The position numbers were made by a program, and so were the translations under genes. The notes beneath the pieces were generated by a model. It saw only the letters and a list, made by a program, of their open reading frames with translations. It ran no database searches and was not told where the DNA came from. From Calothrix sp. C42_A2020_038 (GTDB taxonomy: Bacteria > Cyanobacteriota > Cyanobacteriia > Cyanobacteriales > Nostocaceae), in the NCBI GenBank assembly GCA_015272395.1, contig JACYLQ010000014.1, positions 1 through 64,000 on the forward strand: DNA of 64,000 nucleotides. Reading direction: 5' to 3'. Positions 1-64,000 of the stretch are shown piece by piece. Positions within the stretch are counted from its first letter, which is position 1. Every line of letters begins with the position of its first letter.

Positions 1-21
1 AAGACTGTCGGGCGAGGGCGA

Positions 22-47
22 AAGCCCCCGTGCTTCAGCCGGGGCTT
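22..47. repeat. GC-rich hairpin resembling an IS200/IS605-type end
   Basis: A seven-base-pair stem (AAGCCCC at 22-28 with GGGGCTT at 41-47) closes a 12-base loop containing TGCTTCAG. Hairpins of this look are common at the ends of cyanobacterial IS200/IS605 (TnpB) elements. No transposase is visible in the window, so this may be the edge of an element lying off the left side, or a solitary remnant. The family assignment is inference. Confidence 0.3.
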
Positions 48-92
48 AGCTTACAACCTACCCTTGTAAGAGGGGGTTTCGGTAGTGATTAG

Positions 93-299
93 ATGGTGTG
101 CCAGGGCGAAACTCGGCAAAATTCAGATTGGCAATTAGTTCATGTTTCTAACGAAGAAGAAACTTTTAACGATAGAAAGCATAGTGATTTAATTAATTTA
201 ATGCCTGAAGTGTATAAACAGGCGCCTTGGATTGAAGTCGAAGCCAAACACAAGGAAGAAGCTATTGCAAATTTACGCGAATGGTGGCTTGATAATTGA
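93..299 (+). CDS. small hypothetical protein (68 aa)
   Basis: I do not recognise this protein. It is short, soluble and acidic, with no membrane segment or signal peptide. The C-terminal half is helical and charged and ends in a Trp-rich tail (EWWLDN). A stop codon lies directly before the ATG, so the frame cannot extend upstream. No strong ribosome-binding site is visible, and the N-terminal third may have been created by the repeat-like DNA to its left. It could equally be a truncated C-terminal fragment of a larger protein. Confidence 0.4.
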   Translation: MVCQGETRQNSDWQLVHVSNEEETFNDRKHSDLINLMPEVYKQAPWIEVEAKHKEEAIANLREWWLDN

Positions 300-341
300 A
301 AACAATATCATCTCCGGTAACATAACCGTAATTAACTCCTC

Positions 342-370
342 GTAGAGACGCAATTAAATCGCGTCTCTAC
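342..370. repeat. dispersed cyanobacterial inverted repeat (GTAGAGACGC type)
   Basis: A perfect ten-base inverted repeat, GTAGAGACGC then GCGTCTCTAC, flanks a nine-base AT-rich loop. Repeats of this sequence are widespread in intergenic DNA of filamentous cyanobacteria. Degenerate relatives occur in this window near 19426-19455 and 32562-32621. No function is known to me. Confidence 0.75.
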
Positions 371-584
371 ATTGGTTTTTCACCAGATAGACTCGGAGCG
401 TTGGGTTTTGCTAATAGTTCAGCCATTAACCGAACATGATATCAGTACTAATATGCTATCCATGCAAAGTGACCAAAGTCATGGAACTATTCATGACTAT
501 AGCGAGAACTATTTTTATTGGATATGAGGCTAAATAGTAGCTAGGGAAAGGTATTAACTTACCATACGTTGGTTTCAGCATAAT

Positions 585-620
585 AAAACCTCGCGAATTA
601 TCTTAAATTTGCGAGGTTTT
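585..620 (-). terminator. terminator hairpin of the ECF sigma/anti-sigma operon
   Basis: AAAACCTCGC (585-594) pairs perfectly with GCGAGGTTTT (611-620) around a 16-base AT-rich loop. Read on the minus strand the stem ends in a T tract, about 45 bases after the stop of the anti-sigma gene. The symmetric T runs mean it could also stop transcription coming from the left. Confidence 0.65.
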
Positions 621-666
621 TCTCTCAACATTTTGCTCACAACCAAAGAACATGGAAATATGCTGA

Positions 667-1266
667 TTAATATTCATCATCCATCGAAGTGCGAAACAAG
701 AACATACAACCACCTTTTGTATAAGGAGCATGGGATGAACCGGGTGTGGAGCGGATGTAGTCAAAAGTACCATAGACTTCTGAGCCAATTATCAAATCAC
801 CTTCCAACATATAAATTTCCTCACCTATTGCGTGACGATGTAAGGGATAATGCACACCCTTTTGTGCCCGCAAAATTCCTACGACTTCGCGCTTGACGTT
901 ATCAGTATGTAAAATCGCAATTTCTACGCCTGGAACTAGGTGAGGTTGCCATTGAATATCTTGCGCGCGTACCGCAGTCAAAGACCTTTGGACATTCTCT
1001 GATTGATTTTGATTTATTGGCTGATGAGACTCAACAGGCGCCAGTTCCAAAAGCGCGAACAATCTATCCTTCAAATCTGTAGCCATTGCCACAACGGGCA
1101 CACCGTAAGGAATAGCTGTTGCGGCTGTGTAGTAGTAAGCTAATTCTTCAGCTAGCTCTGGAAATTCTTGCAACTGCTGCTCAACCCAAAGTCGCTTTGA
1201 ATCACTTAATAAGTCTAATACATATAGTGGAGCTAATTCGCAGAAACAATAGTTTTCAATAGCCAT
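667..1266 (-). CDS. putative anti-sigma factor with C-terminal ChrR-like cupin
   Basis: 199 aa. The N-terminal ~50 residues (APLYVLDLLSDSKR.. then PELAEEL) resemble the helical sigma-binding region of RskA/ChrR-type anti-sigma factors. From about residue 105 the protein is a ChrR-like cupin with HRHAIGEE, a later G..YIRSTPGSSHAP stretch and candidate metal ligands at His, His, Glu and His. The zinc-binding HxxxCxxC motif of classical ChrR is not evident; only CFC near residue 7 is seen. The gene starts five bases after the stop of an ECF sigma factor gene, so the two are surely co-transcribed. Inference: it holds the sigma factor inactive and releases it after oxidative or redox sensing by the cupin. 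The ligand is unknown. Confidence 0.7.
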   Translation of the reverse strand: MAIENYCFCELAPLYVLDLLSDSKRLWVEQQLQEFPELAEELAYYYTAATAIPYGVPVVAMATDLKDRLFALLELAPVESHQPINQNQSENVQRSLTAVRAQDIQWQPHLVPGVEIAILHTDNVKREVVGILRAQKGVHYPLHRHAIGEEIYMLEGDLIIGSEVYGTFDYIRSTPGSSHAPYTKGGCMFLFRTSMDDEY

Positions 1267-1271
1267 TATTA

Positions 1272-1832
1272 CTATTCAAGTGCTGATTTTAACTTATTCA
1301 AGCCTAACCTAATTCTGGTTTTGACAGTACCCAAGGAAATGCCTGTTTGAACTGAAATCTGACTATGGCTTAAACCATGATAATAAGCGAGTTCAATTAC
1401 CAGACGCTGTTCTGAGGGTAAAAGTTTTAGTGCGGCTAACACGCGCGAGCGACGCTCACTAACTACTACCTCCTCAATCGGGTCTACACTCGAAGATAAA
1501 GTTTGCGTCTCTGAAACTTTGGTTAAAACTGGTGTTAATGGTTGACTTCGTTGAAGTTTACGCAGTTTATCTAAAATTCGACTGCGAGTTAGCATAAAAA
1601 GCCAAGTATCAACTCTACCTTTAGTCGCATCATAGCGTTCGGAGATGCGCCAGACTTGAGAAAAAACATCCAGCACAACCTCTTCACTTTCCTCGACTGA
1701 TTTCAAACTTTTAAAGGCTACGGAGTAGATAATTCTAGCATAACGATTATACAGTTCCTCAAAAGCAGTCTGGTCATGCTTGGCGATCTGATTTAGCAAT
1801 GAGTGATCAGAAGCTATGGGTCGGCAATCCAT
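1272..1832 (-). CDS. RNA polymerase ECF-type sigma factor (sigma-70 region 2 and 4 only)
   Basis: 186 aa, the usual ECF length. Region 2 spans roughly residues 20-95 (AFEELYNRYARIIYSVAF, then DVFSQVWRISERYD and WLFMLTRSRILDKLR). Region 4 spans about 125-183 (LLPSEQRLVIELAYYHGLSH, then ISLGTVKTRIRLGLNKLK), a helix-turn-helix for the -35 element. Region 3 is absent, as expected. It lies directly upstream of a ChrR-like cupin anti-sigma gene, the classical sigma/anti-sigma pair. It would direct core polymerase to a small stress regulon, probably including its own promoter. I cannot assign a SigG/H/I/J-type name. Confidence 0.88.
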   Translation of the reverse strand: MDCRPIASDHSLLNQIAKHDQTAFEELYNRYARIIYSVAFKSLKSVEESEEVVLDVFSQVWRISERYDATKGRVDTWLFMLTRSRILDKLRKLQRSQPLTPVLTKVSETQTLSSSVDPIEEVVVSERRSRVLAALKLLPSEQRLVIELAYYHGLSHSQISVQTGISLGTVKTRIRLGLNKLKSALE

Positions 1833-2117
1833 TTACAGGCTTAGTTTTTTTCAATCTAAGGAACTTCCAAAAAATTAATTCTCCCGGAATATGGGGTGGA
1901 CATCCATACCTGCCCTGAAAATCTGACGGGCGAGGACACCTATCCTACAAAAAATTTTGAGTATTTATTTAATTGCAAGTCCCTAACTACAGAGTATATC
2001 CTTTTCTCGTCAACCATTGACTATGAATCTGTTTTCGTTGGGTGTAATATAAAAACTAATAAAGACTTCTATACGCAAGCATGTTTTGTTTGCTAGGTAA
2101 CAAGTAACTGACTACCA
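1833..2117. other. divergent intergenic region with a dispersed palindromic repeat
   Basis: This spacer separates the ECF sigma gene (leftward) from the Hsp70-like gene (rightward) and must hold both promoters. It contains a degenerate copy of the repeat family whose core reads GGGCgaggacacCTATCCTAC (about 1923-1946). A 66-codon open frame at 1896-2096 has no ribosome-binding site, has no recognisable product and overlaps the repeat. I see no RNA gene. Confidence 0.5.
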
Positions 2118-3719
2118 ATGGCAATAGCAATCGATTTTGGCACCAGTAATACCGTCATTGCGCGCTGGAATCCAGTCACTCAGCAACCAGAGACTCTAAA
2201 TATACCGGGTTTATCGATTCAACAAAGTTTTAATCCTCCGTTGATTCCAAGTTTGGTGTACATCGAAGATGCGTCTAAAAGTCAAGTTTTGGTGGGACAA
2301 AAAGTACGTGACCAAGGTTTAGATTTATCGAAAGACCCAAGATTTTTTCGCAGTTTCAAGCGTGGTATTGGCGCCTCACTACAAGGATTTTTACCAGAAC
2401 TCGATGGGCAAATGGTAACATTTGAGAAAGTGGGGAAATGGTTTTTGACAAGTGTTATCACTTCTTTGAGTACAACCAATCCCGAAATAGCAGAGTCATT
2501 GGTGTTAACAGTACCTGTTGATAGCTTTGAAGCATACCGTCATTGGTTGGGAAGCGTTTGTCAAGACTTAGCGGTGCAAGAAGTGCGGATGCTTGATGAA
2601 CCAACAGCAGCAGCCCTAGGTTATGGAATTGCCGACCAAGATATACTACTAGTAATTGACTTTGGTGGTGGTACGCTTGATTTATCGTTAGTACGTTTGG
2701 ATAAAAGCTCACAGCAGGGAAACAAACCATTGGGATTTTTATTAAAGTTTGGTAACAAGTCACTTGCAGAGGACTCCAAACAAAAAGTTAAAACAGCGCG
2801 CGTACTAGCGAAAGCTGGGCAAAATTTAGGTGGTACTGATATTGATAATTGGGTAGTAGATTATTTTGTTCAAAATATAGGTATAGTCGCAAGTCCTTTG
2901 ACCACACGTTTAGCAGAAAAGGTCAAAATTCAGCTTTCAACCCAAACCAGCGCTACCGAAGTTTATTTTAATGATCAAACGTTTGAAACCTACGAACTCA
3001 GTTTAAATCGAGAAACCTTTGAGAGCATTCTTAAAGACCATGCATTTTTTGAACGTCTTGATGACTCAATGACAAGCTTACTCCAACAAGCACGGCGCCA
3101 GGGCATCGAAGTTTCAGATATTAACTCAGTCTTACTGGTGGGTGGAACATCACAACTTCCAGCAGTGCAAACATGGGTAAAAAATTATTTTGATGCGAGT
3201 CAAGTTCGTAGCGAGCGTCCGTTTGAAGCTATCGCACAAGGCGCCTTACAATTAACGCAAGGTGTGGAAATCAAAGATTTTTTGTATCACAGCTACGGTA
3301 TTCGCTATTGGGATAAGCGTAACAATCGTCATAGTTGGCATCCCATAGTTAAATCAGGTCAACCTTACCCAATGACTCAACCTATAGAACTACTTTTAGG
3401 CGCCTCGTTGGAAAATCAGCCCAGCATTGAACTAATTATGGGCGAATTAGGCGCCGAAACTGGTGGTACAGAAGTTTTCTTTGATGGTGATAGGTTAATA
3501 ACTCGTCGTCTTGATAGTAGTGTAACTAGCGTCAAACCCCTCAACGATAAAGATGGTGCTAGAACTATCGCCAATTTAACTCCTCCCGGTTTTCCCGGAA
3601 GCGATAGAATTAAAATCTACTTTCAAGTCGATGAGCAACGTTTTTTACGAATTACTGTAGAAGATTTACTCACAAACCAAACACTACTCGAAAACCAATT
3701 AGTTGCACAGTTAAGTTGA
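2118..3719 (+). CDS. Hsp70 family protein (DnaK-like ATPase, non-canonical)
   Basis: 533 aa. The N-terminal ~370 residues are an actin/Hsp70-fold ATPase: phosphate-1 motif DFGTSNT (residues 6-12), phosphate-2 motif VIDFGGGT (about 179-186) and the adenosine motif LLVGGTSQLP (about 339-348). The C-terminal ~150 residues are far shorter than the substrate-binding domain of DnaK and lack its lid. This architecture is typical of the cyanobacterial 'Hsp70 family protein' group, distinct from DnaK1-3. Role inferred: ATP-dependent chaperone or regulator with an unknown client. It stands alone, transcribed away from the ECF sigma operon. ATG at 2118 is well placed, since the first residues are already the phosphate-1 strand. 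Confidence 0.85.
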   Translation: MAIAIDFGTSNTVIARWNPVTQQPETLNIPGLSIQQSFNPPLIPSLVYIEDASKSQVLVGQKVRDQGLDLSKDPRFFRSFKRGIGASLQGFLPELDGQMVTFEKVGKWFLTSVITSLSTTNPEIAESLVLTVPVDSFEAYRHWLGSVCQDLAVQEVRMLDEPTAAALGYGIADQDILLVIDFGGGTLDLSLVRLDKSSQQGNKPLGFLLKFGNKSLAEDSKQKVKTARVLAKAGQNLGGTDIDNWVVDYFVQNIGIVASPLTTRLAEKVKIQLSTQTSATEVYFNDQTFETYELSLNRETFESILKDHAFFERLDDSMTSLLQQARRQGIEVSDINSVLLVGGTSQLPAVQTWVKNYFDASQVRSERPFEAIAQGALQLTQGVEIKDFLYHSYGIRYWDKRNNRHSWHPIVKSGQPYPMTQPIELLLGASLENQPSIELIMGELGAETGGTEVFFDGDRLITRRLDSSVTSVKPLNDKDGARTIANLTPPGFPGSDRIKIYFQVDEQRFLRITVEDLLTNQTLLENQLVAQLS

Positions 3720-3886
3720 CACTTCATTAATTGAGTGCCACTTGTGCAGCTTAAATGCATAGGCTAGCTTTACTGTCAATGCGTAAGTCGTAGAATTTTA
3801 GATTTAGCGTTTGTATATTTTTTTTAAGATATTTCTCTAAAATACATAATTAATGATGGTTTGCCACTACTCAAATATATAGGTAG

Positions 3887-3909
3887 AGGTGCCTTCGGTT
3901 AAGGCACCT
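3887..3909. terminator. hairpin between the hsp70-like gene and the next gene
   Basis: AGGTGCCTT (3887-3895) pairs perfectly with AAGGCACCT (3901-3909) around a five-base loop. Only a short T run follows. It lies 168 bases after the hsp70-like stop and 30 bases before the next ATG. It could be a weak terminator or a structured leader of the downstream gene. Confidence 0.4.
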
Positions 3910-3938
3910 TTAAGGAAACTTTGAGGAGTATCTAAACT

Positions 3939-4313
3939 ATGTCAACCACAAAAAACATACTTAACTTATCACTCGTAGGCTTTTCGATCTCGGTTCTTGC
4001 AGCTTCGACTATTGGTTTTTTTTACAGTCCCTCTGCTGTTCAAGCACAGAAAAGCCAAAGGCCAACAGTTGCAAGAGTTACACAATTATCAAATGGTGAC
4101 TTAGCTTGTTACATCACGTTAGTCGATAGTAAAGGAAAGAAGCACAACAGTATTGTTGGAGGTTTTGATTTTTGTGCGAAACCAAAAACTTACTTAAACA
4201 AAAGAGTACGTCTAACCTATGGTCAAATGCGAATTAATGATTGTCAAAGCGCAGAACCTTGTGGTAAAACGCGCGTGGTAACAGGGATTAGAAAGATGCA
4301 AGTTATTAAGTAA
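3939..4313 (+). CDS. small exported protein of unknown function (124 aa)
   Basis: The first ~36 residues form a Sec signal peptide: a short basic start, a hydrophobic core (SLVGFSISVLAASTIGFFY) and a likely AQA cleavage site before QKSQRP. The mature ~88 residues are basic and contain four cysteines (DLACYI, FDFCAK, NDCQSAEPCG), suggesting two disulfides in the periplasm. GAGGAG about 12 bases before the ATG is a good ribosome-binding site. I do not recognise a named family. A hairpin sits in the leader. Confidence 0.65.
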   Translation: MSTTKNILNLSLVGFSISVLAASTIGFFYSPSAVQAQKSQRPTVARVTQLSNGDLACYITLVDSKGKKHNSIVGGFDFCAKPKTYLNKRVRLTYGQMRINDCQSAEPCGKTRVVTGIRKMQVIK

Positions 4314-4380
4314 TATTTAAGCTCCACCTAGGGGTTAGGTTTTTAAGAGGATATTTAAAAAGTATAAAAACATACATTAA

Positions 4381-4500
4381 CTTCCTCTCTCAGCCTTTCC
4401 CTGACACGGGGAGAGGCTTTGAAACCAGTATTTTTTTGTTCACCTTCCCGCATCTGGGAAGGAGTTAAAGGTTAGGTTAGAGCGTTAACATTGATACTTT
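4381..4500 (-). repeat. ~120-bp interspersed repeat, copy A
   Basis: Read on the minus strand, this begins AAAGTATCAATGTTAACGCT and continues through a CCTTCCC/GGGAAGG hairpin, GAACA..AAAATAC, GTTTCA and CTCCCC blocks. The same order of blocks occurs in the opposite orientation at 37895-38011 (copy B), and a shorter relative lies at 54507-54550. Copy A is wholly intergenic, in the ~295-base spacer between two convergent small exported-protein genes, and contains no open frame. Confidence 0.8.
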
Positions 4501-4608
4501 CCAAACACCCTCTAAGACAACCGCGACTAAATGGAGTATCAAAACTACAATGCCAACAGGCGCCATGAATGATATGGTAACATCTCTGTGACTAGATTAC
4601 GTATCTAC

Positions 4609-5019
4609 TTACTTGAGTAAGTGAATTGCAGCACCAGCAGCGGCGCCAGTTATCGCGTTATTTCCAGTGTTTCTATTTCCTCGAATGGCTCCTGCTGCTA
4701 CACCAGCACCAGCACCAACACCGATATCTTGAACTGCGTTACGGTTTGTTCTGCGAGCTCTATTGGTGCTGCCTTGTTTTGTAGTACCCTGTGCCGCATT
4801 GACAGCAGCACCAGCAGCACCACCGTTAACGGCATTGCCTAAAAAGGAACCTCGACCAGTAATTAAACCAGCAGCGGCACCAGCAGCAGCGCCAACACCA
4901 ATATCACGTAGAACTCGGTCGTCTGCTGATGCTTGTTGTGCTGGCAATAATGTGGCGCTGAACAAGGTTGTAGCCATTAAGCCAGGTAGTAATTTGCGTT
5001 TTAAGGATAGATTTATCAT
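4609..5019 (-). CDS. exported glycine-zipper protein
   Basis: 136 aa. A signal peptide covers residues 1-32 (LLPGLMATTLFSATLLPAQQ, then ASA before DDRV). The mature protein has two copies of a glycine-zipper unit: DIGVGAAAGAAAGLI with GGAAGAAVNAA, then DIGVGAGAGVAAGAI with GAAAGAAIHLL. They are separated by a basic, Asn-rich linker. Glycine-zipper (YmgG/17-kDa antigen-like) segments insert into or span membranes as packed helices, so an outer-membrane or periplasmic location is likely. The function is unknown. It is monocistronic. Confidence 0.75.
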   Translation of the reverse strand: MINLSLKRKLLPGLMATTLFSATLLPAQQASADDRVLRDIGVGAAAGAAAGLITGRGSFLGNAVNGGAAGAAVNAAQGTTKQGSTNRARRTNRNAVQDIGVGAGAGVAAGAIRGNRNTGNNAITGAAAGAAIHLLK

Positions 5020-5140
5020 GCACCTACCTATTCATTCAATAATATGTTGTGTTTTTGCTCTTATCTCTAGTTTAAAGAATATTACTGAAATGAGAATTGT
5101 AATGTTTAACTTACGTAAGTGTCACATCATACTTATGAAA

Positions 5141-5503
5141 TCACATGATTGGGGGATGTTTAATATCAAGAGTTTCATTTAATAACTTGGGTTGAGTTGA
5201 TGCTGAAATATCCTTTAAAGCTTGTTTTTTCTCGACTACAGCTTGTCGAAAACCTAGGACAATTAGTATGTTAGTAAGCGTTAAAAACACTTCTGCACTA
5301 CCATGCAACCAGTCAACATTTGCTAAAGATTGACCATAGTGCAGTTGGGCATAAATTCCAGCAGGAATTGTAACTGCGACAAATACGAGAGTTCCATAAA
5401 AGCCATACAGAGCTAGTTTGGGCATTTGACCGGAACGGGTAATAAACCATAAAAAACCCAAATAAGGAAATAGCGAAAGCGCAAATAAAGTTTCTTTTGA
5501 CAT
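5141..5503 (-). CDS. DUF3593 family membrane protein
   Basis: 120 aa with three hydrophobic segments: LFALSLFPYLGFLWFI, LALYGFYGTLVFVAVTIPAG and a later TLTNILIVLGF. The latter two flank HYGQSLANVDWLHGSAE, a motif region typical of DUF3593, a family of cyanobacteria and plastids. The C-terminal 30 residues are a hydrophilic tail. It follows the DUF2499 gene after 20 bases on the same strand. The pair is conserved and probably encodes interacting thylakoid or plasma membrane proteins. The molecular role is unknown. Confidence 0.8.
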   Translation of the reverse strand: MSKETLFALSLFPYLGFLWFITRSGQMPKLALYGFYGTLVFVAVTIPAGIYAQLHYGQSLANVDWLHGSAEVFLTLTNILIVLGFRQAVVEKKQALKDISASTQPKLLNETLDIKHPPIM

Positions 5504-5523
5504 GTTGATGTAACTAAAAGTTT

Positions 5524-5829
5524 TTAAACTTGCTGTGATTTACTCGCGCGCCACACAAAGAATGCGGCAATCAATAAAGTAAAATTACCTAATACTGTCA
5601 TGCTAGCTTGTAATGTTACTAACCATTCCAAAGATGGAGAATTATCAAAATAATGCCATGTACAAGCACACATAGCGCTGACTAATGCTGGTAACATTGC
5701 AAATGACAAACCCCACCAAGTCTTATTTTGAGTAAGTTCACCATAAGTCCAAATTAACCAAATAGCGGCTATCCATTCAATAACGCTAGAAATATGAATT
5801 ATCCAAGTGGGAATTGAAAGAGCGTGCAT
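5524..5829 (-). CDS. DUF2499 family membrane protein
   Basis: 101 aa from the chosen start. MHALSIPTWIIHISSVIEW is the conserved N-terminus of DUF2499, so I start at the ATG whose complement is 5827-5829. An open frame extends upstream to 5910, but its extra 27 residues (NPSPNPSPLRGRG) are a translation of a common cyanobacterial G/C-rich intergenic repeat and are very unlikely to be native. Three hydrophobic segments and ALVSAMCACTWHYF are visible. It precedes the DUF3593 gene by 20 bases. Both families occur in cyanobacteria and plastids; function unknown. Confidence 0.85.
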   Translation of the reverse strand: MHALSIPTWIIHISSVIEWIAAIWLIWTYGELTQNKTWWGLSFAMLPALVSAMCACTWHYFDNSPSLEWLVTLQASMTVLGNFTLLIAAFFVWRASKSQQV

Positions 5830-5854
5830 AAAAATCAAAAATAGTAGTATTTGT

Positions 5855-5900
5855 ATACCCCGTCCCCGCAACGGAGAGGGGTTAGGGGAGGGGTTATGTA
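5855..5900. repeat. G/C-rich dispersed repeat (CCCCTCTCC/GGAGAGGGG type)
   Basis: The stretch CCCCGTCCCCGCAACGGAGA, followed by GGGGTTAGGGGAGGGG, is a well-known intergenic repeat type of filamentous cyanobacteria. Here it abuts and extends the DUF2499 open frame. Related fragments lie inside the cobN gene near 9675-9735. Confidence 0.6.
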
Positions 5901-7027: not shown

Positions 7028-7033
7028 TCACAA

Positions 7034-49325: not shown

Positions 49326-50501
49326 ATGGCTATCGAAGTAGACTATCGTTTTACACCGACTATAGATGCACACAAGCAAGCTAAAGTTATTGCGATAGGG
49401 CAAACAGTAGGAACTTGGGACGCGCGCTTTGCTCATCGTGAGGCAAGTTTAACATCACATAAGAGTGAAGTTGTATCGGTTTTCAAAGAACCCGATAATT
49501 ACAGCATTGCTACAATTCGCTTTCCTGAAGCTAATGTCGAGAACGATGTGAGTAGTTTACTGACAATGATATTCGGTAAGTACTCAATGGCAGGCACCGC
49601 GAAAGTCATTGCAGTGCGGTTGCCTGAAAATTATGGGTTGCGTCCAAAATTTGGCATATCTGGAATACGTGAGTTATTGAACGTGCGCGAACGTCCATTG
49701 ATAATGGCAATTTTCAAACCTGCTTTGGGACTTTCTGCAATAGACCATGCTGCAATTTTGAAAGAAGTTGCTTTTGCGGGTTTAGATATTATTAAAGATG
49801 ATGAAATTTTAGGTAATCTTCCTTCTTGTCAGACTTTAGAACGCTTAAAAGCTTGCCGTGAAGTACTTGATACAGTTAAACAACAAACTGGACGCACTGT
49901 ACTTTATGCTGTTAACGTTACAGGAAATGCAGCACAATTACTACAGCGTGCGCGCGAGTTAGTAAGTCATGGCGCCAATGCTTTACTATTAAATGTCTTT
50001 TCCTACGGGTTTTCTGTTCTGGAAGCTTTAGTTAGTGATCCAGAAGTCAATGTGCCTATATTTACTCACCCTGCTGGTGCAGGCGCCCTTTGTGCTGCTC
50101 CTGACTATGGGTTTGCTTATTCGGTTTCCTTGGGAACTTTAATGGCTTATGCAGGCGCCGATGCTGTTTTGTACCCAGCACATTATGGTAATTTACCATT
50201 CGATGCCAATCAAGAAGCCCAAATTCGCGATACTTTAAGAGCTAGAAATACAATGCCAGTACCTTCAGCAGGTATTCATCCAGGTGTTGTAAGTAAAGCA
50301 ATTTCTGACTATGGACAAGATGTAATTCTCAACGCTGGTACAGGTATTATGGACCACCCCGACGGCGCCGCATCCGGTGTCAAAGCATTTTTTGAAGCAC
50401 TTGAATACGCTCAAAAAGGTGAATCTTTGAGTTTGGATAGCTTACCAGATGGCGCTTTAAAAAGTGCAATTCAAAAATGGGGTGTTTGGGTAGACAAGTA
50501 A
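49326..50501 (+). CDS. mtnW: RuBisCO-like protein, MtnW-type (DK-MTP-1-P enolase)
   Basis: 391 aa, form IV RuBisCO-like. Conserved elements are IFKPALGLS (Lys131), DIIKDDE (Lys157 for carbamylation, with Asp159 and Glu160 as Mg ligands), FTHPAGAGALCAAPDYGFAY and PVPSAGIHPGVVSK. The last replaces RuBisCO loop 6 Lys334, as in YkrW/MtnW. The C-terminal LKSAIQKWGV is typical. MtnW enolises 2,3-diketo-5-methylthiopentyl-1-phosphate in the methionine salvage pathway; a Microcystis homologue does this. It cannot be a carboxylase. No other salvage gene (mtnA, mtnB, mtnX, mtnD) is in the window. The catalytic base Lys of MtnW was not pinpointed. Confidence 0.8.
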   Translation: MAIEVDYRFTPTIDAHKQAKVIAIGQTVGTWDARFAHREASLTSHKSEVVSVFKEPDNYSIATIRFPEANVENDVSSLLTMIFGKYSMAGTAKVIAVRLPENYGLRPKFGISGIRELLNVRERPLIMAIFKPALGLSAIDHAAILKEVAFAGLDIIKDDEILGNLPSCQTLERLKACREVLDTVKQQTGRTVLYAVNVTGNAAQLLQRARELVSHGANALLLNVFSYGFSVLEALVSDPEVNVPIFTHPAGAGALCAAPDYGFAYSVSLGTLMAYAGADAVLYPAHYGNLPFDANQEAQIRDTLRARNTMPVPSAGIHPGVVSKAISDYGQDVILNAGTGIMDHPDGAASGVKAFFEALEYAQKGESLSLDSLPDGALKSAIQKWGVWVDK

Positions 50502-50743: not shown

Positions 50744-51727
50744 ATGAGTAAGCAAGCACAACACACTAGTTTAAGAATTATTGACTTTTTTGCTGGCTGC
50801 GGTGGATTGTCTTTAGGCTTTCAAAATGCAGGTTTTGAAATTATTGCAGCATTTGACAAATGGGAACCAGCGATACAAGTCTATAGAAAGAATTTCTCAC
50901 ATCAAATTTATAGTTGTGACCTTGGCAAGTTAGATAATTATGAGTGCTTTCTTCGCTTTAAACCTGACATGATTATAGGTGGTCCACCTTGTCAGGATTT
51001 TTCTAGTGCAGGTAAACGTAATGAAGATTTAGGTAGAGGTGATTTAAGTATAACTTTTGCGAAAATCATTGCTTTCGTAAAACCTAAATGGTTTGTAATG
51101 GAAAATGTAGATAGATATCAAAAAAGCAAAAAATATAGCCAGATTATAAAGATTGTTAAAGGCAATGGTTACGGGCTGACAGAAAGTGTAATTAATGCAG
51201 CATTTTGTGGTGTACCTCAAAGCAGAAAGAGGTATTTTTGTATTGGAGAATTAAATGGTGTAGATAATGCCTTAACGACCTATATAAATACCAATTTATC
51301 TAAAGAACCCACTACGATTAGGCAATATTTAGGAAACAGTTTAGGAATTGAATATTATTACAGGCATCCTAGAAGTTATGAAAGACGTGCTATCTTTAGC
51401 ATTGATGAGCCAAGTCCGACAATTAGAGGCGTAAATAGACCTGTTCCTAAAACATATAAATTACATCCTGGAGATGCGGCGCCTGTCACTCCTAACTTAC
51501 GTCCATTAACAACTATTGAGCGAAGCTATATACAGACATTTCCCAAAAATTTTATTTTTGATGAAAATAATCAATCTAAAACCGATTTGGAACAGATGAT
51601 TGGTAATGCAGTACCAGTAAAATTGGCTGAGTTTGTTGCAAGATGTTTACTTCAATATTTAGATGATAATGGGTCGAATGTTAAACAAATACAATCGACA
51701 CAACTAGAATTTTGTTTACAGGTTTAG
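50744..51727 (+). CDS. solitary C5-cytosine DNA methyltransferase
   Basis: 327 aa, complete. Motif I is DFFAGCGGLSLGFQNAGF, and motif IV is GGPPCQDFSSAGKR with catalytic Cys83. Motif VI is WFVMENVDRYQ and motif VIII is CGVPQSRKRYFCIG. The short target-recognition region (about residues 175-245) contains YYYRHPRSYERRAIFSIDEP and PTIRGVNRP. Motifs IX-X are LTTIERSYIQTFP and MIGNAVPVKLAEF. No restriction endonuclease or Vsr gene is adjacent, so it appears to be an orphan (Dmt-type) methylase. The target site cannot be read from sequence. Codon use appears somewhat more AT-rich than neighbours, and only one GGCGCC lies within it. Confidence 0.92.
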   Translation: MSKQAQHTSLRIIDFFAGCGGLSLGFQNAGFEIIAAFDKWEPAIQVYRKNFSHQIYSCDLGKLDNYECFLRFKPDMIIGGPPCQDFSSAGKRNEDLGRGDLSITFAKIIAFVKPKWFVMENVDRYQKSKKYSQIIKIVKGNGYGLTESVINAAFCGVPQSRKRYFCIGELNGVDNALTTYINTNLSKEPTTIRQYLGNSLGIEYYYRHPRSYERRAIFSIDEPSPTIRGVNRPVPKTYKLHPGDAAPVTPNLRPLTTIERSYIQTFPKNFIFDENNQSKTDLEQMIGNAVPVKLAEFVARCLLQYLDDNGSNVKQIQSTQLEFCLQV

Positions 51728-51783: not shown

Positions 51784-53829
51784 TTAACTAACAGTGATGA
51801 CAACACCTGTGCTTTCGTTGGCGAGTCTATCGACTGCACAAACGGCATATTGTCCTGGTTCGATGGTGGCGAAGTTTGTACCGCGACTTAAGATGCGCTG
51901 AAGTGTCCAACTGTCCCCACTGCGTCGGTATAGAGTCCAAGAACGAATTTCGCGCGTGTCTCCTGGTTGCCAAGATAGGCGCCGCGAAGTGACTTGCAGT
52001 TGAGTCGGTGGGGATGGTGGGTTAGAATTGCGCCAAGGCATAGTCGGCGCCAGTGCGGGAGTATTATATATAGATTGTCGGAATTTGTCGGCGATACCCT
52101 GACGATTATCTCTGATCGCACTCATACTAAAAAAGATGTTGCCCAAAGATAAATCGTTAATTAGGTTACGACTAATTATTACTTGTTTTTCGATTTCTTC
52201 GTCTTTCCAAGCTTTTCCATCCAGTTGACTAAGATTATTACCTGCGTAAACATGGCGTTGTCTGATATTAATTTCTGTCCACCATTTGAGTAAGGCTGGG
52301 TAACTTTGCTGTGTTTGGTCGGTACGCCAATATAATTGGGGAGCGATATAATCAACCCAACCTTGTTCAAGCCATTTCTTGGCATCTGCATACAGTACAG
52401 CGAAAGCGTCTAGACCTCTAATACCTGGTGGTTGTTCAGGTCTATAAATTCCAAAAGGACTAATGCCGAATTTGACATGGGGTTTTGCTATTCTGATACC
52501 TTGGGAAAGACGTGATACCATTTGATTGACATTTTCGCGGCGCCAATCTTCTAAGCTCAAATTACCGCCAGCACTACGATAAGCTGCATAAGTTCTATTA
52601 TCCGGGAAGGACTGTCCTTGTATTGGGTAAGGGTAAAAATAATCATCAAGATGGATACCGTCAACATCGTAGCGTTGCAGCACATCCATAATCACATTGT
52701 ATGCACGGTCTTGCACTACCTTGGCGCCGGGGTCCATCCATAGCTGGTTGCCCCATTGGTAGACAACATCAGGGTTCGTGACAGCGAGATGGGGACGAGC
52801 AAGGTTCCCCTGTCTAATAGAAGTTTTAGCACGATAAGGATTAAACCATGCGTGAAGTTCAATATTGCGTTTACGACATTCGGCAATAGCAAATTCTAGC
52901 GGGTCATAAAATGGTTCGGGTGGTTGACCTTGTGTTCCAGAAAACCACGCACTCCAAGGTTCTAATTGTGACCGATAAGCCGCATCACCTTCGGGACGTA
53001 CTTGAAAAATCAGCGCGTTGAAATTCAGTTGTTGGAGTTGGGTGATAATATCTACAAGTTCAGCTTTTTGCCTGTCGGCAGATAAACCTGCTTTTGAGGG
53101 AAAGTCGCTGTTCCATACACACGCTAACCAGGCGCCGCGAAACTCACGACGATGACCCACACGAACAGTTCCTGTAGAAGGTGGAGTTGGAGTTGGGGTT
53201 GGGGTTGGGGTTGTAGTTGGTCGATGAGAGACTAAAAAACTCGATGCAATTTTTGGAGCTTCGCCAAGGTATACCAAACCTTGGTAAATAAATACAGCCA
53301 CATCAGCGCGCGTTGCTGCTAAATTTGGATTGAGTAATTTAGTATTTGGATAGCTAGATACTATTTCTGCACTTGTTGCTATTGCTACTTGATTACGCGC
53401 ATATCCAGGTATTTGTGTTGAATCTTGATAGATTTGGGGTAAGCTAGTTACTAAATCAGGCCTGACTTTTGAGGCAATGTCTAAACCGGATACCAGTGAA
53501 ATTAGAACTTCGAGGCGTGAAATCCGGTTTTCAGGACGAAAGCGGTTATCTGGAAAGCCACTGATAAATCCAGTTTCAAAAGCTTTTTGAATTGCTGCTG
53601 CTGCCCAATGATTTGTTGGAACATCTAGAAAGGGTGTAAAAGAACGCCTTTTTGGAACATTCGCAAAAGCTTTGGTTATAATTGCTGCATACTCTGCGCG
53701 TGTAATAGAATTATCAGGACGAAAGGCGCCGTTTTGTCCTGCAACCACACCACGTCGCAATAAAGGTTCGATAAATGGACGTGCCCAGTGATTTTGAATA
53801 TCAGAAAATGATGTAGGATTAGATACCAT
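51784..53829 (-). CDS. SLH-domain glycoside hydrolase (GHL10/DUF187 family)
   Basis: 681 aa. Three SLH domains cover residues ~7-195 (FSDIQNHWARPFIEPLLRRG, FLDVPTNHWAAAAIQKAFET, a third near YQDSTQIPGYARNQV). A Thr-Pro linker (TTTPTPTPTPTPP) follows. A GHL10 TIM barrel spans about 225-590 (REFRGAWLACVWNSDFPSKA, FQVRPEGDAAYRS, HAWFNPYR, DGIHLDDYFYPYP, FGISPFGIYRP). A small C-terminal beta domain is likely fibronectin-like. Family members may act on glycosaminoglycan or wall-linked sugars. The SLH domains would bind peptidoglycan-linked pyruvylated polymer, which fits CsaB. Odd: no signal peptide at the N-terminus (MVSNPTSFSD). Confidence 0.85.
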   Translation of the reverse strand: MVSNPTSFSDIQNHWARPFIEPLLRRGVVAGQNGAFRPDNSITRAEYAAIITKAFANVPKRRSFTPFLDVPTNHWAAAAIQKAFETGFISGFPDNRFRPENRISRLEVLISLVSGLDIASKVRPDLVTSLPQIYQDSTQIPGYARNQVAIATSAEIVSSYPNTKLLNPNLAATRADVAVFIYQGLVYLGEAPKIASSFLVSHRPTTTPTPTPTPTPPSTGTVRVGHRREFRGAWLACVWNSDFPSKAGLSADRQKAELVDIITQLQQLNFNALIFQVRPEGDAAYRSQLEPWSAWFSGTQGQPPEPFYDPLEFAIAECRKRNIELHAWFNPYRAKTSIRQGNLARPHLAVTNPDVVYQWGNQLWMDPGAKVVQDRAYNVIMDVLQRYDVDGIHLDDYFYPYPIQGQSFPDNRTYAAYRSAGGNLSLEDWRRENVNQMVSRLSQGIRIAKPHVKFGISPFGIYRPEQPPGIRGLDAFAVLYADAKKWLEQGWVDYIAPQLYWRTDQTQQSYPALLKWWTEINIRQRHVYAGNNLSQLDGKAWKDEEIEKQVIISRNLINDLSLGNIFFSMSAIRDNRQGIADKFRQSIYNTPALAPTMPWRNSNPPSPPTQLQVTSRRLSWQPGDTREIRSWTLYRRSGDSWTLQRILSRGTNFATIEPGQYAVCAVDRLANESTGVVITVS

Positions 53830-60010: not shown

Positions 60011-60754
60011 ATGACTGAAAATTATTTATACCAGTATCCAAGCTTATATCCAGGTATTTTAATAAAACGCTACAAGCGATTTTTTGCAGATGTTGAACTT
60101 GCTTCAGGGGAAATAGTCACTGCACATTGTCCGAATACTGGACCGATGACGGGAGTTTCAACACCAGGTAGTACAGTTATGGTGTCAAAAAGTCAAAACG
60201 AATCCCGGAAGTTAGCTTACACTCTTGAACTGATACAGGTGAATGATAACGAACCAACTTGGGTTGGTATAAACACCGTTTTACCTAATCGAATAGTGAA
60301 ATTAGCACTTTCACAGTATTTATTTCCTGAACTCGGCAACTATACTTTGATTAAAGGTGAGGTGCCTTATGGGCTAGATAAAAAGAGCCGTATTGATTTT
60401 TTGTTGACAGGTGACAGTAGTTCTTTTTTACCAACTTATGTTGAAGTGAAAAATACAACTTGGGCTTCGGGTCGGTTAGCGCTATTTCCCGATACTGAAA
60501 CTACACGGGGACAAAAGCATCTGCGTGAGCTAATGGCATTGTTACCCCATAGTCGCGCGGTAATGCTGTATTTTATCAACCGAGGAGACTGTACGGCTTT
60601 TGCCCCAGGTGATATTGCTGACCCTGTATATGGTCAGTTGCTGAGGGATGCTTGTGCAATGGGTGTTGAGATATTACCTTGTCGATTTGAAGTGACTCCA
60701 CTCGGTGTTCGTTATTTGGGTTTAGCAACATTTAATTTTAATGAACTCACATAA
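60011..60754 (+). CDS. sfsA: SfsA-family DNA/RNA nuclease
   Basis: 247 aa, normal length. An N-terminal OB-like domain (ILIKRYKRFFADVELASGEI, VTAHCPNTGPMTGV) is followed by a PD-(D/E)xK domain (GYGLDKKSRIDFLL-like KSRIDFLLTGD, PTYVEVKNTTWASGRLALFP, DTETTRGQKHLRELM). The catalytic Asp in RIDF and Glu-x-Lys in VEVKN are present. E. coli SfsA was named as a sugar fermentation stimulation protein; its true role is unsettled. The A-rich spacer provides a poor ribosome-binding site. Confidence 0.92.
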   Translation: MTENYLYQYPSLYPGILIKRYKRFFADVELASGEIVTAHCPNTGPMTGVSTPGSTVMVSKSQNESRKLAYTLELIQVNDNEPTWVGINTVLPNRIVKLALSQYLFPELGNYTLIKGEVPYGLDKKSRIDFLLTGDSSSFLPTYVEVKNTTWASGRLALFPDTETTRGQKHLRELMALLPHSRAVMLYFINRGDCTAFAPGDIADPVYGQLLRDACAMGVEILPCRFEVTPLGVRYLGLATFNFNELT

Positions 60755-60756
60755 AA

Positions 60757-60784
60757 AAAGCAGGCGCCGAAATTGACGACTGCT
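60757..60784. terminator. weak hairpin between sfsA and ndhD
   Basis: AAGCAG and CTGCTT pair around a 16-base loop containing GGCGCC. An A run on the plus strand (60754-60758) gives a seven-T tail for leftward ndhD transcripts. The stem is only six base pairs. Confidence 0.5.
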
Positions 60785-60824
60785 TGATATTGTTCAGAGG
60801 TAGAGGTTGACCAGGTTGATCAAT

Positions 60825-62507
60825 TCACTTCAAAGTTCCTAAAACAGTTGCGGTTTCTGCTTCTGTAATTTTAGGAGTTAGGAATCCTTGAGCGTAAACA
60901 CTAGGATTAGACTGCGCTATTTGCGTGTAATTTTCACGAATTTGAGTATTAATTGCAACTGTTTTCACATCATACATTTGCATGGCAAATTTAGGATATA
61001 GGCCAATGCCTATAATTAGCACTAGGAAGCTAGCAGCGATGAAGACTTCGCGCGGGCTAGCATCTCGGTAAACTGATTTGGTTGGGAGAATACAGTCGGT
61101 TCCAAAACAGACTACATCGTCACTTTCCAAAGTTTGTAAACCAGTACTTCCAATTTCACATTTGAGTATGGCGCCGTTACCGTAGAATACCTGCTTGAGT
61201 AAACCGAGTAGGTATATTGGGGTGAGAATAACTCCCACAGCAGCAAGGAAGACTGTGACAGTACAGAAGGTAGAACTGTAAATGTCGCTTGAAGTCACAC
61301 CAACAAAAACTGCCAGTTCACTAGCAAAACCACTCATTCCAGGCAGTGCTAGCGAAGCCATCGCACCAATTGTAAATAGAGCAAACACTTTTGGCATTAC
61401 TTGACCGACACCACCCATTTCTTCCATCGTCATTGTGTGAGTGCGGTCGTAGGTAACACCGGCTAAAAAAAACAGTACTGCTGCAATCAAACCGTGGGAA
61501 ACCATCTGTAGCATCGCACCATTAATTCCCAAGTCGGTAAATGAAGCAATACCCAGCAGCACAAAACCCATGTGTGATACTGATGAATAGGCTAACCGAC
61601 GCTTCATGTTTTTCTGAGCTAACGAGTTTAAGGCGCCGTAGATAATATTAATCACACCAAGAATAGCTAAGACTGGCGCAAAATAAATGTGTGCATTACC
61701 AAGCAACTCCATATTGACGCGGATTAATCCGTATCCACCCATTTTGAGGAGTACACCAGCCAAAATCATAGATACAGGAGCAGAAGCTTCTCCGTGAGCA
61801 TCTGGCAACCATGTATGTAGAGGGAAAATAGCAAGCTTAACACCAAAGGCAATTAGCAATCCTGCATATAAAACAAGTTCTAAGCCAATCGGATAATCTT
61901 TCAAAGCAAGTGTGGCAATATCGAAAGTTAAATTACCACCGTAAAGTCCCATTCCCAATACTGCTACAAGAATAAAGATAGATGCTGCTGCTGTGTACAG
62001 TATGAACTTAGTAGCCGCATAACGACGCTTTTGCCCACCCCAAATTGAAACAAGTAAATAAACGGGAACTAGCTCAACTTCCCACATTATGAAAAATAAC
62101 AGCAAGTCCTGCGCGACGAATACCCCTATCTGTGCCGAATATAAAACCAGCATCAGCGCGTAAAATAAGCGCGGCCGTCGGTCAACTTGCCAAGCTGAAA
62201 AAATTGCTAGTGTCGTGACAAAACCCGCAAGAAGCACAAGCGGAACCGACAAACCATCAACCGAAACTGCCCAATTCAGACCTAACTGGGGTACCCAGGC
62301 GTAATTCTCCGCGAGTTGAAATTTTGCACTAGTTGCATCGTAATGCTTCCAAAACGCATAGCACATTAATACCAAGTCGGCGATACTTACTCCTAAAGCA
62401 TACCACCGCACCAGCTTGCCATCTTTATCTGGCAAAAACGGAATCGCTAGGGAAGCAACTAGTGGTAAGAAGATAATCGCGGTTAGCCAAGGAAAATGTT
62501 CCGCCAT
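60825..62507 (-). CDS. ndhD1: NAD(P)H-quinone oxidoreductase subunit 4 (NdhD1-type)
   Basis: 560 aa with about 14 helices. It is an antiporter-like subunit of the photosynthetic NDH-1 complex in thylakoids. The conserved Glu in [35 protein letters not shown], and Lys/His in [20 protein letters not shown] are proton-path residues. The C-terminal [20 protein letters not shown] and [20 protein letters not shown] extension is typical of filamentous cyanobacterial NdhD1 and makes it longer than plastid NdhD. NdhD1 with NdhF1 forms NDH-1L for respiration and cyclic flow. ndhF is not visible upstream within the 1.5 kb shown, which is unusual for an ndhF-ndhD order. Confidence 0.92.
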
Positions 62508-64000
62508 GATGTCAATAAGAAAAAATACTCATTTTTTTGTGATGAAGCTATTCTACTAAAGTTTGTTAATTTTTGTTCATAAGTCTTTATAATAGTTACA
62601 TGCAGCACTAACTTATAGTGCAGATATGCAGTCATCTCGCTCGATTAATCTCGATCAATATTTATCTGTTGTTGCCTTAACAAGAATTAATGTTTTGCAA
62701 TAATTTGCAAGCAAGCTAAAGAGCTTGTCCTAATTGTCACCAGAAGATGACAATCACTGACTTTAGAGAATCGGTTTCAAGTCGCCTGAAAGTATTAGTT
62801 TAGTGATCAAAGCACAATCATAGTACTTAAGTTCTAATAATTGCAGCAAACCATTGTAAAAAAATGTAGTGTAATTATGCCTACAATTACTTCACGTGGA
62901 TAAAATTTTTGCCTCGAAAAGGTGTATTAGGTGACTTTTTTCGTAAGTTTACTATGCATTTTTGTATCATGTAGGCTAATATTGTTAGTCCTGAGTGTCA
63001 AACCCGTTTTGAATTGATTAAAATACGTTGTATACAATAAGAACAGTTTGTCAAGTCTCACAGGGCTGACATTTCAGTAGTACGTTCGCGTGCGATTAAA
63101 ATTAAATAAGCTAAAGTTGAATTAATCTGCCAAATGGTTGATTTTGACTATGTCTTAGCAATCTCGTTTGGGTTGCTACATGTTCAAGTTGAGCCTCTTG
63201 ATTAGAATATGGCTCATTTTCTAAGGGTTAGGTGTTCATAGCTCATGAAAGCTTCAAAGCTTATTTGTGAGACAGGCGCCGATTCAGAAATGCTTTGCAC
63301 TTCGAGCATCTATGTTTGGGATAGTTTTGGGTTTGCGACCCAAAACAAGAAACAAATGAAGAGTTTTCTTTGTTTATTTCTGATTTCCCTGTAGTTAGCA
63401 AGGAGTGATTGGTAAATGCAAACAATAGCGCACGCTAAGGATTTTATTCAAAAATCTTGATAAGGAAGTGTAATGTAAGACCGCTAACAATTTTCGTTTA
63501 CGATTCTGCGTCTTTCATGAGCTTGATTACCAAATAGCGATTGAGGTTTTGGCGAAGAACTTGAACAAATCAAAATTTATTTTACGGAATCTTGAAGGTA
63601 ACAACAATTTCTTATTGGTTCCGATGAAGTTTTAGAAAAAGTTCAGGCATGTAGTAGCGGCTCAAGATTTGTATTTGGTATGGCAAGCTTTTGCCAATTC
63701 TAAGTAATTCATGGATATTACACAAAAAAAGTGCAATTTCTGTGAAACAGGCTACAATCTAAAAAGTCTTGACAAAAAAATATCCGAAGCCATTAGTAAA
63801 GATGTTTTTTTGCGAGAAGTATTTTTCTTGAAAAGCTTGTCATGGGCAATTCAATCTTAAAATTTTGTTGCACAGCAACATTTATCGTTTTTTGATTTAA
63901 CAAAAGTGCCAAACGAAAATGCGATTATCACTACTACTCTTGAAATGGGGTATTCCATAAGTGGTTTTTAGTATAAACGTGAGGTAAGTTGAAAAAGCTC
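62508..64000. other. ~1.5-kb gene-free region at the right edge
   Basis: I find no open frame of 60 codons or more on either strand. Small elements seen: a hairpin GTTTTGGGT/ACCCAAAAC (63324-63346); one GGCGCC (63276-63281); a 49-codon frame at 63245-63394 without a ribosome-binding site; and a 14-codon frame at 63417-63461 (MQTIAHAKDFIQKS) preceded by AAGGAGTGATTGG, which is a plausible ribosome-binding site. A -35-like TTGACA lies at 63772-63777. No tmRNA, RNase P, SRP or group II intron signature is recognised. It may be ndhD upstream DNA plus a long leader of a gene off the right edge, or decayed DNA. Confidence 0.5.

What the first reader, a model, noticed from the sequence alone, without database searches (positions are those of the whole stretch)
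1..64000. Massive over-representation of the palindrome GGCGCC with apparent absence of HIP1
Counting by eye, GGCGCC occurs about 89 times and GCGCGC about 26 times, with further CGCGCG runs. At roughly 40% G+C the chance expectation for any one all-G/C hexamer in 64 kb is about four. Copies are spread evenly, lie in all three reading frames of most genes as well as in spacers, and have varied flanks (TGGCGCCA, AGGCGCCT, CGGCGCCG), so codon use alone does not explain them. I found no GCGATCGC, the HIP1 octamer that marks many cyanobacterial genomes. GGCGCC and GCGCGC share the core GCGC. This looks like a replacement for HIP1 in this lineage.
Basis: partly seen in the sequence, partly recalled or inferred. 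Interest (0 to 1): 0.72.

Follow-up and report, generated by a model that had tools for sequence, protein, structure and literature searches.

The report
GGCGCC marks replacing HIP1 in Calothrix
A whole group of filamentous cyanobacteria has lost the short DNA mark that fills most cyanobacterial genomes and carries a different one, GGCGCC, thousands of times instead; the swap goes with the loss of one DNA-methylating enzyme and the keeping of another, and the new mark is held in place by a force that can be measured.

Summary
GGCGCC occurs 90 times and GCGATCGC never in the window; genome-wide they occur 7475 and 147 times in 6.53 Mb. The phenomenon is already in print for Calothrix PCC 7103 (Elhai 2015, PMC4390886). 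Added here: (1) the swap is genus-wide, 7 of 7 genomes, against 0 of 41 other family genomes. (2) The window carries a lone cytosine-5 methyltransferase (50744-51727), found in all 7. Its relatives outside the genus mostly sit beside HindVP restriction enzymes (27 of 39 loci) and share its recognition region; there GGCGCC is shunned, here it is 30-45 times over-represented. (3) A methyltransferase I take for the CGATCG class is missing in 7 of 7 and present in 24 of 24 family members tested. (4) Synonymous changes at the four outer bases of GGCGCC are almost absent (3 against 35.9 expected), with no protection of the flanks, while the central CpG changes freely. This fits a methylated, hypermutable centre and a fixation bias of S about 3-4, not repair spreading from the site. 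GCGCGC is a bystander. Selection or biased conversion remains open; methylation was not measured.

The parts
1..64000 (.). 90 copies of the palindrome GGCGCC; no GCGATCGC
   Evidence: exact count and Markov model; codon-shuffle control
50744..51727 (+). lone DNA cytosine-5 methyltransferase (327 aa, Pfam DNA_methylase), inferred specificity GRCGYC, which includes GGCGCC; no HindVP restriction-enzyme gene in the genome
   Evidence: in 7 of 7 genus genomes; same neighbours in 5 of 6 relatives; homologues outside the genus paired with HindVP enzymes in 27 of 39 loci (6 of 6 tested are PF09519); recognition region at least as conserved as the whole protein in 10 of 11 comparisons
49326..50501 (+). 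left neighbour of the methyltransferase, conserved synteny marker (RuBisCO-like by my reading, not tested)
51784..53829 (-). right neighbour of the methyltransferase, conserved synteny marker (S-layer-domain protein by my reading, not tested)

Best explanation
GGCGCC is an alternate highly iterated palindrome (HIP) fixed in the ancestor of one genus (the Calothrix PCC 7103 / Dulcicalothrix group). SHOWN: the genus-wide swap of GGCGCC for HIP1; presence in all seven members of a lone m5C methyltransferase (the one in the window) of a family otherwise mostly found in HindVP-type restriction-modification systems; absence of a second methyltransferase, probably the CGATCG class, that all 24 tested HIP1-bearing family members keep; near-freezing of the four outer bases at synonymous sites; no protection of neighbouring bases. 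INFERRED: the window enzyme methylates the inner C of GGCGCC (GG-m5C-GCC); once the old CGATCG mark was lost, the cell came to use this methylated site; sites are now kept by a fixation bias on the whole hexamer (S about 3-4), while deamination of the methylated C keeps making mostly short-lived GGTGCC/GGCACC losses. I think selection on the methylated mark is the likeliest source of the bias; biased conversion between chromosome copies is the main alternative.
For: Clade: 7 of 7 genus genomes have 1144-1711 GGCGCC per Mb and 31-163 HIP1 per genome; 41 other family genomes (17) have 0-530 GGCGCC and 535-7721 HIP1 per genome. Enzyme: 80-90% identical orthologue in 6 of 6 relatives, same neighbours in 5 of 6. 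Specificity: HindVP gene beside the homologue in 27 of 39 loci outside the genus, 6 of 6 tested PF09519; over those 39 loci GGCGCC is 18 against 103.5 expected, GACGTC 16 against 56.8, GACGCC 30.5 against 72.7 (sums of the two groups); recognition region 57-73% identical to six HindVP-linked enzymes that are 50-69% identical overall. HindVP itself: 0 of 7 genus genomes, 6 of 35 others. CGATCG-class enzyme: 0 of 7 against 24 of 24. Maintenance: outer synonymous losses 3 against 35.9 (P 2e-12), the lowest ratio of 182 hexamer classes; all outer losses 7 against 36.4 and gains 6 against 0.80. One S fits outer losses and gains: 4.2 (2.9-6.0) from synonymous losses, 3.0 (2.0-4.2) from all losses; the first predicts an enrichment e^S of 18-395, the second 8-65, against 30-45 seen.
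Against: Methylation was not measured. Losses outnumber gains on the terminal branches (46 to 6), so part of the set may be decaying. That central losses are short-lived rests on some comparisons only: 36 of 770 at 5.9% divergence, 40 of 689 at 12.4% and 16 of 305 at 10.0%, but 105 of 1131 at 6.3% for PCC 7103 and 5 of 42 for the clade against the own genome. In spacers no protection is seen, on very few sites (28 windows, outer losses 2 against 2.2). A lone homologue is not enough: Hassallia, Spirirestis, Tolypothrix and Plectonema loci (L026, L027, L029, L031; no HindVP gene within about 2.6 kb, HIP1 present) have 1, 0, 0, 0 GGCGCC in 16-21 kb, and G266, with the homologue, no HindVP and 6611 HIP1, has 277. 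Low HIP1 is not enough either: G267 has 535 HIP1 in 10.7 Mb and only 326 GGCGCC. The CGATCG class is named from recall of the slr0214 type and from prevalence; three low-HIP1 genomes outside the family keep it (G182, G192, G230). e^S ignores the hypermutable centre, which would lower the predicted enrichment. The substitution data come from one region of relatives, not from the window's own genome.
Confidence: 0.7

Rival explanations
1. Elhai's ratchet: a mismatch-repair system directed by G-m5C creates and protects sites as a by-product, until about one site per kb is reached and the bias stops.
For: Explains why HIPs carry a methylated GC and why density is about 1 per kb (PMC4390886, section 14 read). 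Gains through GGTGCC to GGCGCC are allowed in it, and 5 of 6 gains seen are of that kind.
Against: No drop of substitution rate around sites: at 4-500 bp O/E is 0.97-1.18, and it falls, not rises, further away (0.86 at 501-1000 bp, 0.63 beyond), while the hexamer's outer bases are at 3 of 35.9. The bias still acts at saturating density. No gain at positions 2 or 5 among 70 ancestral neighbours there, though under 0.1 was expected without bias. The paper's suggestion that a second methyltransferase copy was critical is not supported: the own genome and PCC 7102 show only one close copy among the listed matches.
Confidence: 0.15
2. Biased conversion or uptake drive: when chromosome copies (or taken-up kin DNA) pair, the intact GGCGCC strand wins over the mutated one, as in DNA uptake sequences or GC-biased conversion. 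No function of the site is needed.
For: Losses and gains fit one symmetric fixation bias, which drive gives as well as selection; losses do not clearly depend on how far the next site is; loss of CGATCG methylation in Synechocystis is reported to lower conjugation by half (PMC6604393, abstract and passages).
Against: Sites in the most crowded third are conserved slightly less (0.88, 0.76, 0.72 in PCC 7102, PCC 7103, NIES-4105, against 0.90-0.94, 0.78-0.80, 0.83 in the other thirds), a weak and non-independent hint of redundancy that drive does not predict.
Confidence: 0.25
3. Very short patch repair (Vsr) next to the methyltransferase turns TG mismatches back to CG and piles up GGCGCC, as at CCWGG in E. 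coli (recalled).
For: Gains are mostly T to C at the centre.
Against: Vsr (PF03852) is found in 0 of 42 genomes searched, 7 of them the genus; and the centre is the one place that is not protected.
Confidence: 0.03
4. Base composition or codon use alone.
For: 41 of 81 coding copies are GGC GCC in frame.
Against: Order-3 Markov 12 against 90; synonymous shuffle 5.9 against 81; CGCGCG and GCGCGC not protected.
Confidence: 0.02

Closest known systems
GGCGCC alternate HIP of Calothrix PCC 7103 (Elhai 2015, PMC4390886)
   Same: Same hexamer, same loss of HIP1, same genus, GRCGYC-type methyltransferase proposed as partner
   Different: There one genome and 19 kb of a second; alternate HIPs are called sporadic, not in clades. 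Here 7 of 7 genomes of a genus, the enzyme placed in the window, its HindVP kinship, and substitution data on maintenance
HIP1 (GCGATCGC)
   Same: GC-rich palindrome at about 1 per kb, partner m5C methyltransferase, claimed to be under selection (Xu et al. 2018, seen only as cited in PMC6604393; not read)
   Different: Other sequence, other methyltransferase; no GATC core, so no Dam-type adenine mark inside
HindVP / HgiDI-type GRCGYC restriction-modification systems (specificity recalled)
   Same: Window enzyme is of this methyltransferase family with a very similar recognition region
   Different: No HindVP enzyme in the genus; sites are amplified instead of avoided
DNA uptake sequences of Neisseria and Pasteurellaceae (recalled)
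   Same: Short word at about 1 per kb held against mutation by a genome-wide bias
   Different: Palindrome with a methyltransferase partner; no uptake link shown here

Membership tests
Alternate HIP (Elhai 2015) | GC-rich palindrome over-represented to roughly 500-2500 per Mb | tested here: met
   1144-1711 GGCGCC per Mb in 7 of 7 genus genomes
Alternate HIP (Elhai 2015) | HIP1 low or nearly absent in the same genome | tested here: met
   31-163 copies per genome, 0.6 to 4 times the reversed-word control; other family genomes 535-7721
Alternate HIP (Elhai 2015) | A methyltransferase able to methylate the palindrome is present | tested here: inconclusive
   Presence in 7 of 7; specificity only inferred from family, recognition region and site avoidance, not assayed
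Alternate HIP (Elhai 2015) | The palindrome is actually methylated | not testable with these tools
   No methylation data; a mutable central CpG is indirect
HIP1 | Sequence GCGATCGC at high density | tested here: not met
   0 in window, 147 in genome
HindVP-type R-M methyltransferase | Methyltransferase homologous over its full length including recognition region | tested here: met
   50-69% overall, 57-73% in the recognition region against six HindVP-linked enzymes
HindVP-type R-M system | Cognate restriction enzyme in the genome | tested here: not met
   PF09519 in 0 of 7 genus genomes
Vsr-linked over-representation | Vsr endonuclease in the genome | tested here: not met
   0 of 42, own genome included
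DNA uptake sequence | Preferred uptake of DNA bearing the word | not testable with these tools
   needs transformation assay

The most novel reading that the evidence does not exclude
Cyanobacteria need a genome-wide cytosine-methylated GC-palindrome, but not a particular one: an unknown reader protein recognises the shared G-m5C step, so that after the CGATCG methylase is lost a lone ex-restriction methylase can take over and selection rebuilds some 7,500-20,000 new sites. HIP1 and GGCGCC would then be exchangeable dialects of one chromosomal mark, each kept by selection of similar strength.
Probability: 0.2. Interest if true: 0.88.

Novelty: new member of a known kind. Interest (0 to 1): 0.6.

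Why it matters
What HIP1 is for is still open. A genus in which the mark has been swapped is a natural experiment: it separates the sequence from the methylation. The argument that alternate HIPs do not persist in clades, used in 2015 to argue that only HIP1 is functional, does not hold for this genus. The substitution pattern puts a number (S about 3-4) on the force that keeps GGCGCC, and shows that it acts on the hexamer alone, which narrows the possible mechanisms. The genus contains culture-collection strains (PCC 7102, PCC 7103, PCC 7716), so methylation mapping and deletion of the enzyme could be attempted.

Tried and rejected
Position-by-position conversion of HIP1 into GGCGCC: not seen, 0 of 21 positions (only 21 HIP1 and 14 GGCGCC window positions could be aligned). 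Vsr: rejected. GCGC core family: rejected. Local repair shadow around sites: not seen. Need for two methyltransferase copies: not supported. Redundancy test by neighbour distance: weak and not independent. PDB searches of two own methyltransferases gave only general m5C relatives such as HaeIII and HhaI and no specificity. NCBIfam gave the dcm superfamily and weaker hits, nothing for the two HindVP proteins sent. Alignable synteny of the own contig with relatives is only 19-33 kb, so the gain-loss analysis was done among relatives. A first pass on two branches only (450 windows, losses 17 against 45.7, gains 6 against 0.6) gave the same picture as the larger. Paper searches: 'GGCGCC cyanobacteria', 'Calothrix GGCGCC methyltransferase' and HIP searches listed no later paper on the GGCGCC mark that I recognised; the library holds open-licence papers only. 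A search for Dulcicalothrix listed nothing relevant in its 8 rows. Structure prediction and the viral, phage and plasmid collections were not used.
Full report
CHECK. The window is 64,000 bases at 39.6% G+C. GGCGCC occurs 90 times; an order-3 Markov model expects 12 and ranks it first among hexamers. GCGATCGC and CGATCG do not occur. Over the whole 6.53-Mb genome (50 contigs) GGCGCC occurs 7475 times against 2 for the reversed word and GCGATCGC 147 times against 37. Shuffling synonymous codons among 47 mechanically predicted genes gives 5.9 +- 2.2 GGCGCC against 81 in coding DNA.

ALREADY IN PRINT. Elhai 2015 (PMC4390886; I saw the abstract, sections 9, 13 and 14, and search passages) reports GGCGCC as a replacement of HIP1 in Calothrix PCC 7103 and in 19,301 bases of Calothrix D253, links it to two GRCGYC-specific methyltransferases, and proposes that mismatch repair directed by methylated GC creates such sites as a by-product. 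It states that exceptional HIPs occur sporadically, not in clades. The listings showed me no later treatment in the open-licence library.

A GENUS, NOT A STRAIN. In 243 genomes drawn from the order the 17 other genomes of the own family have 0-283 GGCGCC and 1285-6655 HIP1. Closer relatives include six of the same genus: PCC 7716 (G243), NIES-4105 (G244), Dulcicalothrix desertica PCC 7102 (G245), PCC 7103 (G246), MAG FI2-JRJ7 (G247) and HK-06 (G248). Five names come from contig lengths and positions shared; HK-06 is by elimination and identity. All six have 1511-1711 GGCGCC per Mb and 31-163 HIP1 per genome (reversed-word control 51-75). The 24 other family genomes have 3-530 GGCGCC and 535-7721 HIP1. 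So 7 of 7 against 0 of 41. G267 shows that low HIP1 alone does not bring GGCGCC (535 and 326 in 10.7 Mb). Outside the family some genomes are rich in GGCGCC too: G059 (9489 in 3.8 Mb, control 2450, HIP1 74), G116 (2365 in 2.2 Mb, control 1104), G194 (1840, control 579), several g13 genomes (about 1000-1100, control 600-684) and three genera of family f9 that keep HIP1 (G008 2493, G170 3403, G037/G060/G193 about 1050). Their composition was not examined, so I cannot say which are comparable; the HindVP gene is in none of G008, G170, G037, G060, G193, G059, G194, G116.

THE ENZYME IS IN THE WINDOW. The own genome has seven intact m5C methyltransferase genes and one fragment. Three have neighbours that Pfam names restriction enzymes (TdeIII, Bse634I/Cfr10I, Eco29kI). 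The gene at 50744-51727 has none. It has an 80-90% identical orthologue in all six relatives, between the same two neighbours in five of six (the HK-06 contig matches only the enzyme, with a second partial copy beside it). The own genome and PCC 7102 show no second copy above 55% identity among the matches listed (the list was cut at weak matches). Outside the genus 7 of 53 genomes have it near full length at 62-73% identity.

SPECIFICITY. Of the 57 loci, 39 outside the genus were examined for neighbours and sites: a gene of the HindVP cluster lies beside the homologue in 27, and 6 of 6 tested are HindVP restriction endonucleases (PF09519). That HindVP/HindV cuts GRCGYC is my recall. Site counts over those 39 loci, adding the two groups: GGCGCC 18 against 103.5 (14 against 71.9 with HindVP, 4 against 31.6 without), GACGTC 16 against 56.8, GACGCC 30.5 against 72.7. 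An earlier pool of 34 loci looked cleaner (GGCGCC 4 against 86, GACGTC 3 against 45, GGCGTC 18.5 against 59), but I had left out L054, L056, L063 and L073, which one search had shown to be little depleted, and L064; the 39-locus figures are the fair ones. Still outside both pools: L034, L038-L040, L042, L046, L058, L059, L070, L074, L075. Avoidance of palindromes is common in these genomes (GGGCCC, GTGCAC, AGATCT and others are about as low), so avoidance alone would not prove the specificity. The region between motifs VIII and IX of the window enzyme is 57-73% identical to six HindVP-linked enzymes that are 50-69% identical overall. HindVP is in 0 of 7 genus genomes and 6 of 35 others searched; the six have 3-88 GGCGCC. 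The same enzyme family thus goes with avoidance where a restriction enzyme is present and with 30-45-fold enrichment in this genus. A lone homologue with HIP1 kept does not bring enrichment (L026, L027, L029, L031: 1, 0, 0, 0 in 16-21 kb; G266: 277 in 6.5 Mb).

THE OLD MARK'S ENZYME. A 413-residue methyltransferase of G271 that I take, from recall of its sequence type, for the slr0214/DmtC class is present in 24 of 24 other family genomes, at 51-100% identity (G258, G262 and G265 matched in pieces, one piece of G265 at 44%), and in 0 of 7 of the genus, whose best-scoring matches are other methyltransferases at 35-40%. That slr0214 encodes the CGATCG m5C enzyme is stated in PMC6604393 (passages). 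Of nine low-HIP1 genomes outside the family, six lack it and three (G182, G192, G230) have it.

HOW SITES ARE KEPT. Stretches around the enzyme were aligned to 720 kb of PCC 7716: 219 kb of PCC 7102, 337 kb of PCC 7103, 84 kb of FI2-JRJ7, 191 kb of NIES-4105 and 33 kb of the own genome. Between PCC 7716 and PCC 7102 (94% identical) 278 of 307 GGCGCC counted from both sides are shared, against 44 of 64 CGCGCG. Changes were polarised on terminal branches of four relatives where all other relatives agree: 683 ancestral GGCGCC windows lost 46 against 69.7 expected from trinucleotide rates. The losses are lopsided: outer bases 1, 2, 5, 6 lost 7 against 36.4, the central CpG 39 against 33.4, of which 37 are C to T or G to A. 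Gains are 6 against 0.80, five of them at the centre. Control palindromes are on the whole lost near the expected rate (CGCGCG 23 against 19.6, GCGCGC 16 against 13.8). Restricted to synonymous changes: outer 3 against 35.9, centre 29 against 35.9; among 182 hexamer classes with at least 10 expected synonymous outer losses GGCGCC is the lowest (0.09; next 0.30; median 0.99). In spacers 28 windows show 2 outer losses against 2.2, too few to judge, but no sign of protection.

Do central losses accumulate? Single central differences are 36 of 770 occurrences at 5.9% divergence (PCC 7102), 40 of 689 at 12.4% (NIES-4105), and 16 of 305 at 10.0% for unanimous clade sites against NIES-4105, which looks like saturation; but PCC 7103 has 105 of 1131 at 6.3%, and the clade against the own genome 5 of 42 at 9.7%. 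FI2-JRJ7 and PCC 7103 have more central losses per site than the other two (7 of 61, 15 of 137 against 13 of 279, 4 of 206). Against expectation the central ratio is 0.37 and 0.64 at about 6% and 0.20-0.21 at 10-12%, 0.52 for the own genome. A hypermutable centre with removal or reversal of most losses explains most of this; methylation of that C by the window enzyme is the natural cause, with strength differing between strains. One fixation bias fits outer losses and gains together: S 4.2 (2.9-6.0) with synonymous losses, 3.0 (2.0-4.2) with all losses. The enrichments predicted (18-395, 8-65) include the observed 30-45, and the central mutation rate would have to be 7 to 19 times that of other GCG sites. 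This is a model; a hypermutable centre would by itself lower the predicted enrichment, and the imbalance of 46 losses to 6 gains could also mean slow decay.

REPAIR MODELS. Substitution rates next to sites are normal from 4 bp on (O/E 1.10, 1.03, 1.14, 1.18, 1.05, 1.04, 0.97 up to 500 bp) and lower far from sites (0.86 at 501-1000, 0.63 beyond); bases 1-3 away are at 0.87, 0.87, 0.65 with errors near 0.2. A repair system that protects DNA around the site should leave a shadow and none is seen. Vsr was found in 0 of 42 genomes.

HIP1 RELICS. At 21 window positions where relatives carry HIP1, the own sequence is GCTATTGC or GCAATAGC in 24 of 75 aligned pairs and never has a GGCGCC within 7 bp. 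GCAATTGC is over-represented in the window (10 against 1.6), but not beyond the codon-shuffle range (9 against 4.7, maximum 11).

VERDICT. A real, strong, genus-wide case of a known kind, with the likely enzyme inside the window and a measure of the force that keeps the sites.

Noticed in passing
window 1-64000 and stretches of five relatives: CGCGCG is about 3 times its trinucleotide expectation in the genus (971 against 318 in 2.2 Mb) but 3 against 20 in nine other Nostocaceae loci; it is not protected against loss. ACGCGT (7 against 362) and CCGCGG (0 against 151) are nearly absent in the genus.
   Followed up: partly
own genome, contig C24 about 424-445 kb (L138, L139), C32 about 92-101 kb (L125), C13 about 19.8 kb: The remaining HIP1 copies look clustered in the part of the 147 that one search listed; one lies in the gene of an Eco29kI-type methyltransferase. 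They may be imports from HIP1-bearing cyanobacteria.
   Followed up: partly
G059, G116, G194 (other families); G008, G170, G037, G060, G193 (family f9): Other genomes of the order with many GGCGCC; G059 has also lost HIP1, the f9 genomes keep it. Possible independent cases, composition not checked.
   Followed up: no
G246 (PCC 7103) and G247 (FI2-JRJ7): More central losses of GGCGCC per site than in PCC 7716 and PCC 7102, as if maintenance were weaker or methylation stronger.
   Followed up: no
own contigs C41, C43, C13 (L001, L006, L007): Three methyltransferase genes with TdeIII-, Cfr10I/Bse634I- and Eco29kI-type nuclease genes beside them.
   Followed up: no
L025-L073, several phyla: HindVP-type pairs with a similar recognition region occur in cyanobacteria, Poribacteria, Bacteroidota, Pseudomonadota, Bacillota and others, which suggests wide transfer.
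   Followed up: partly
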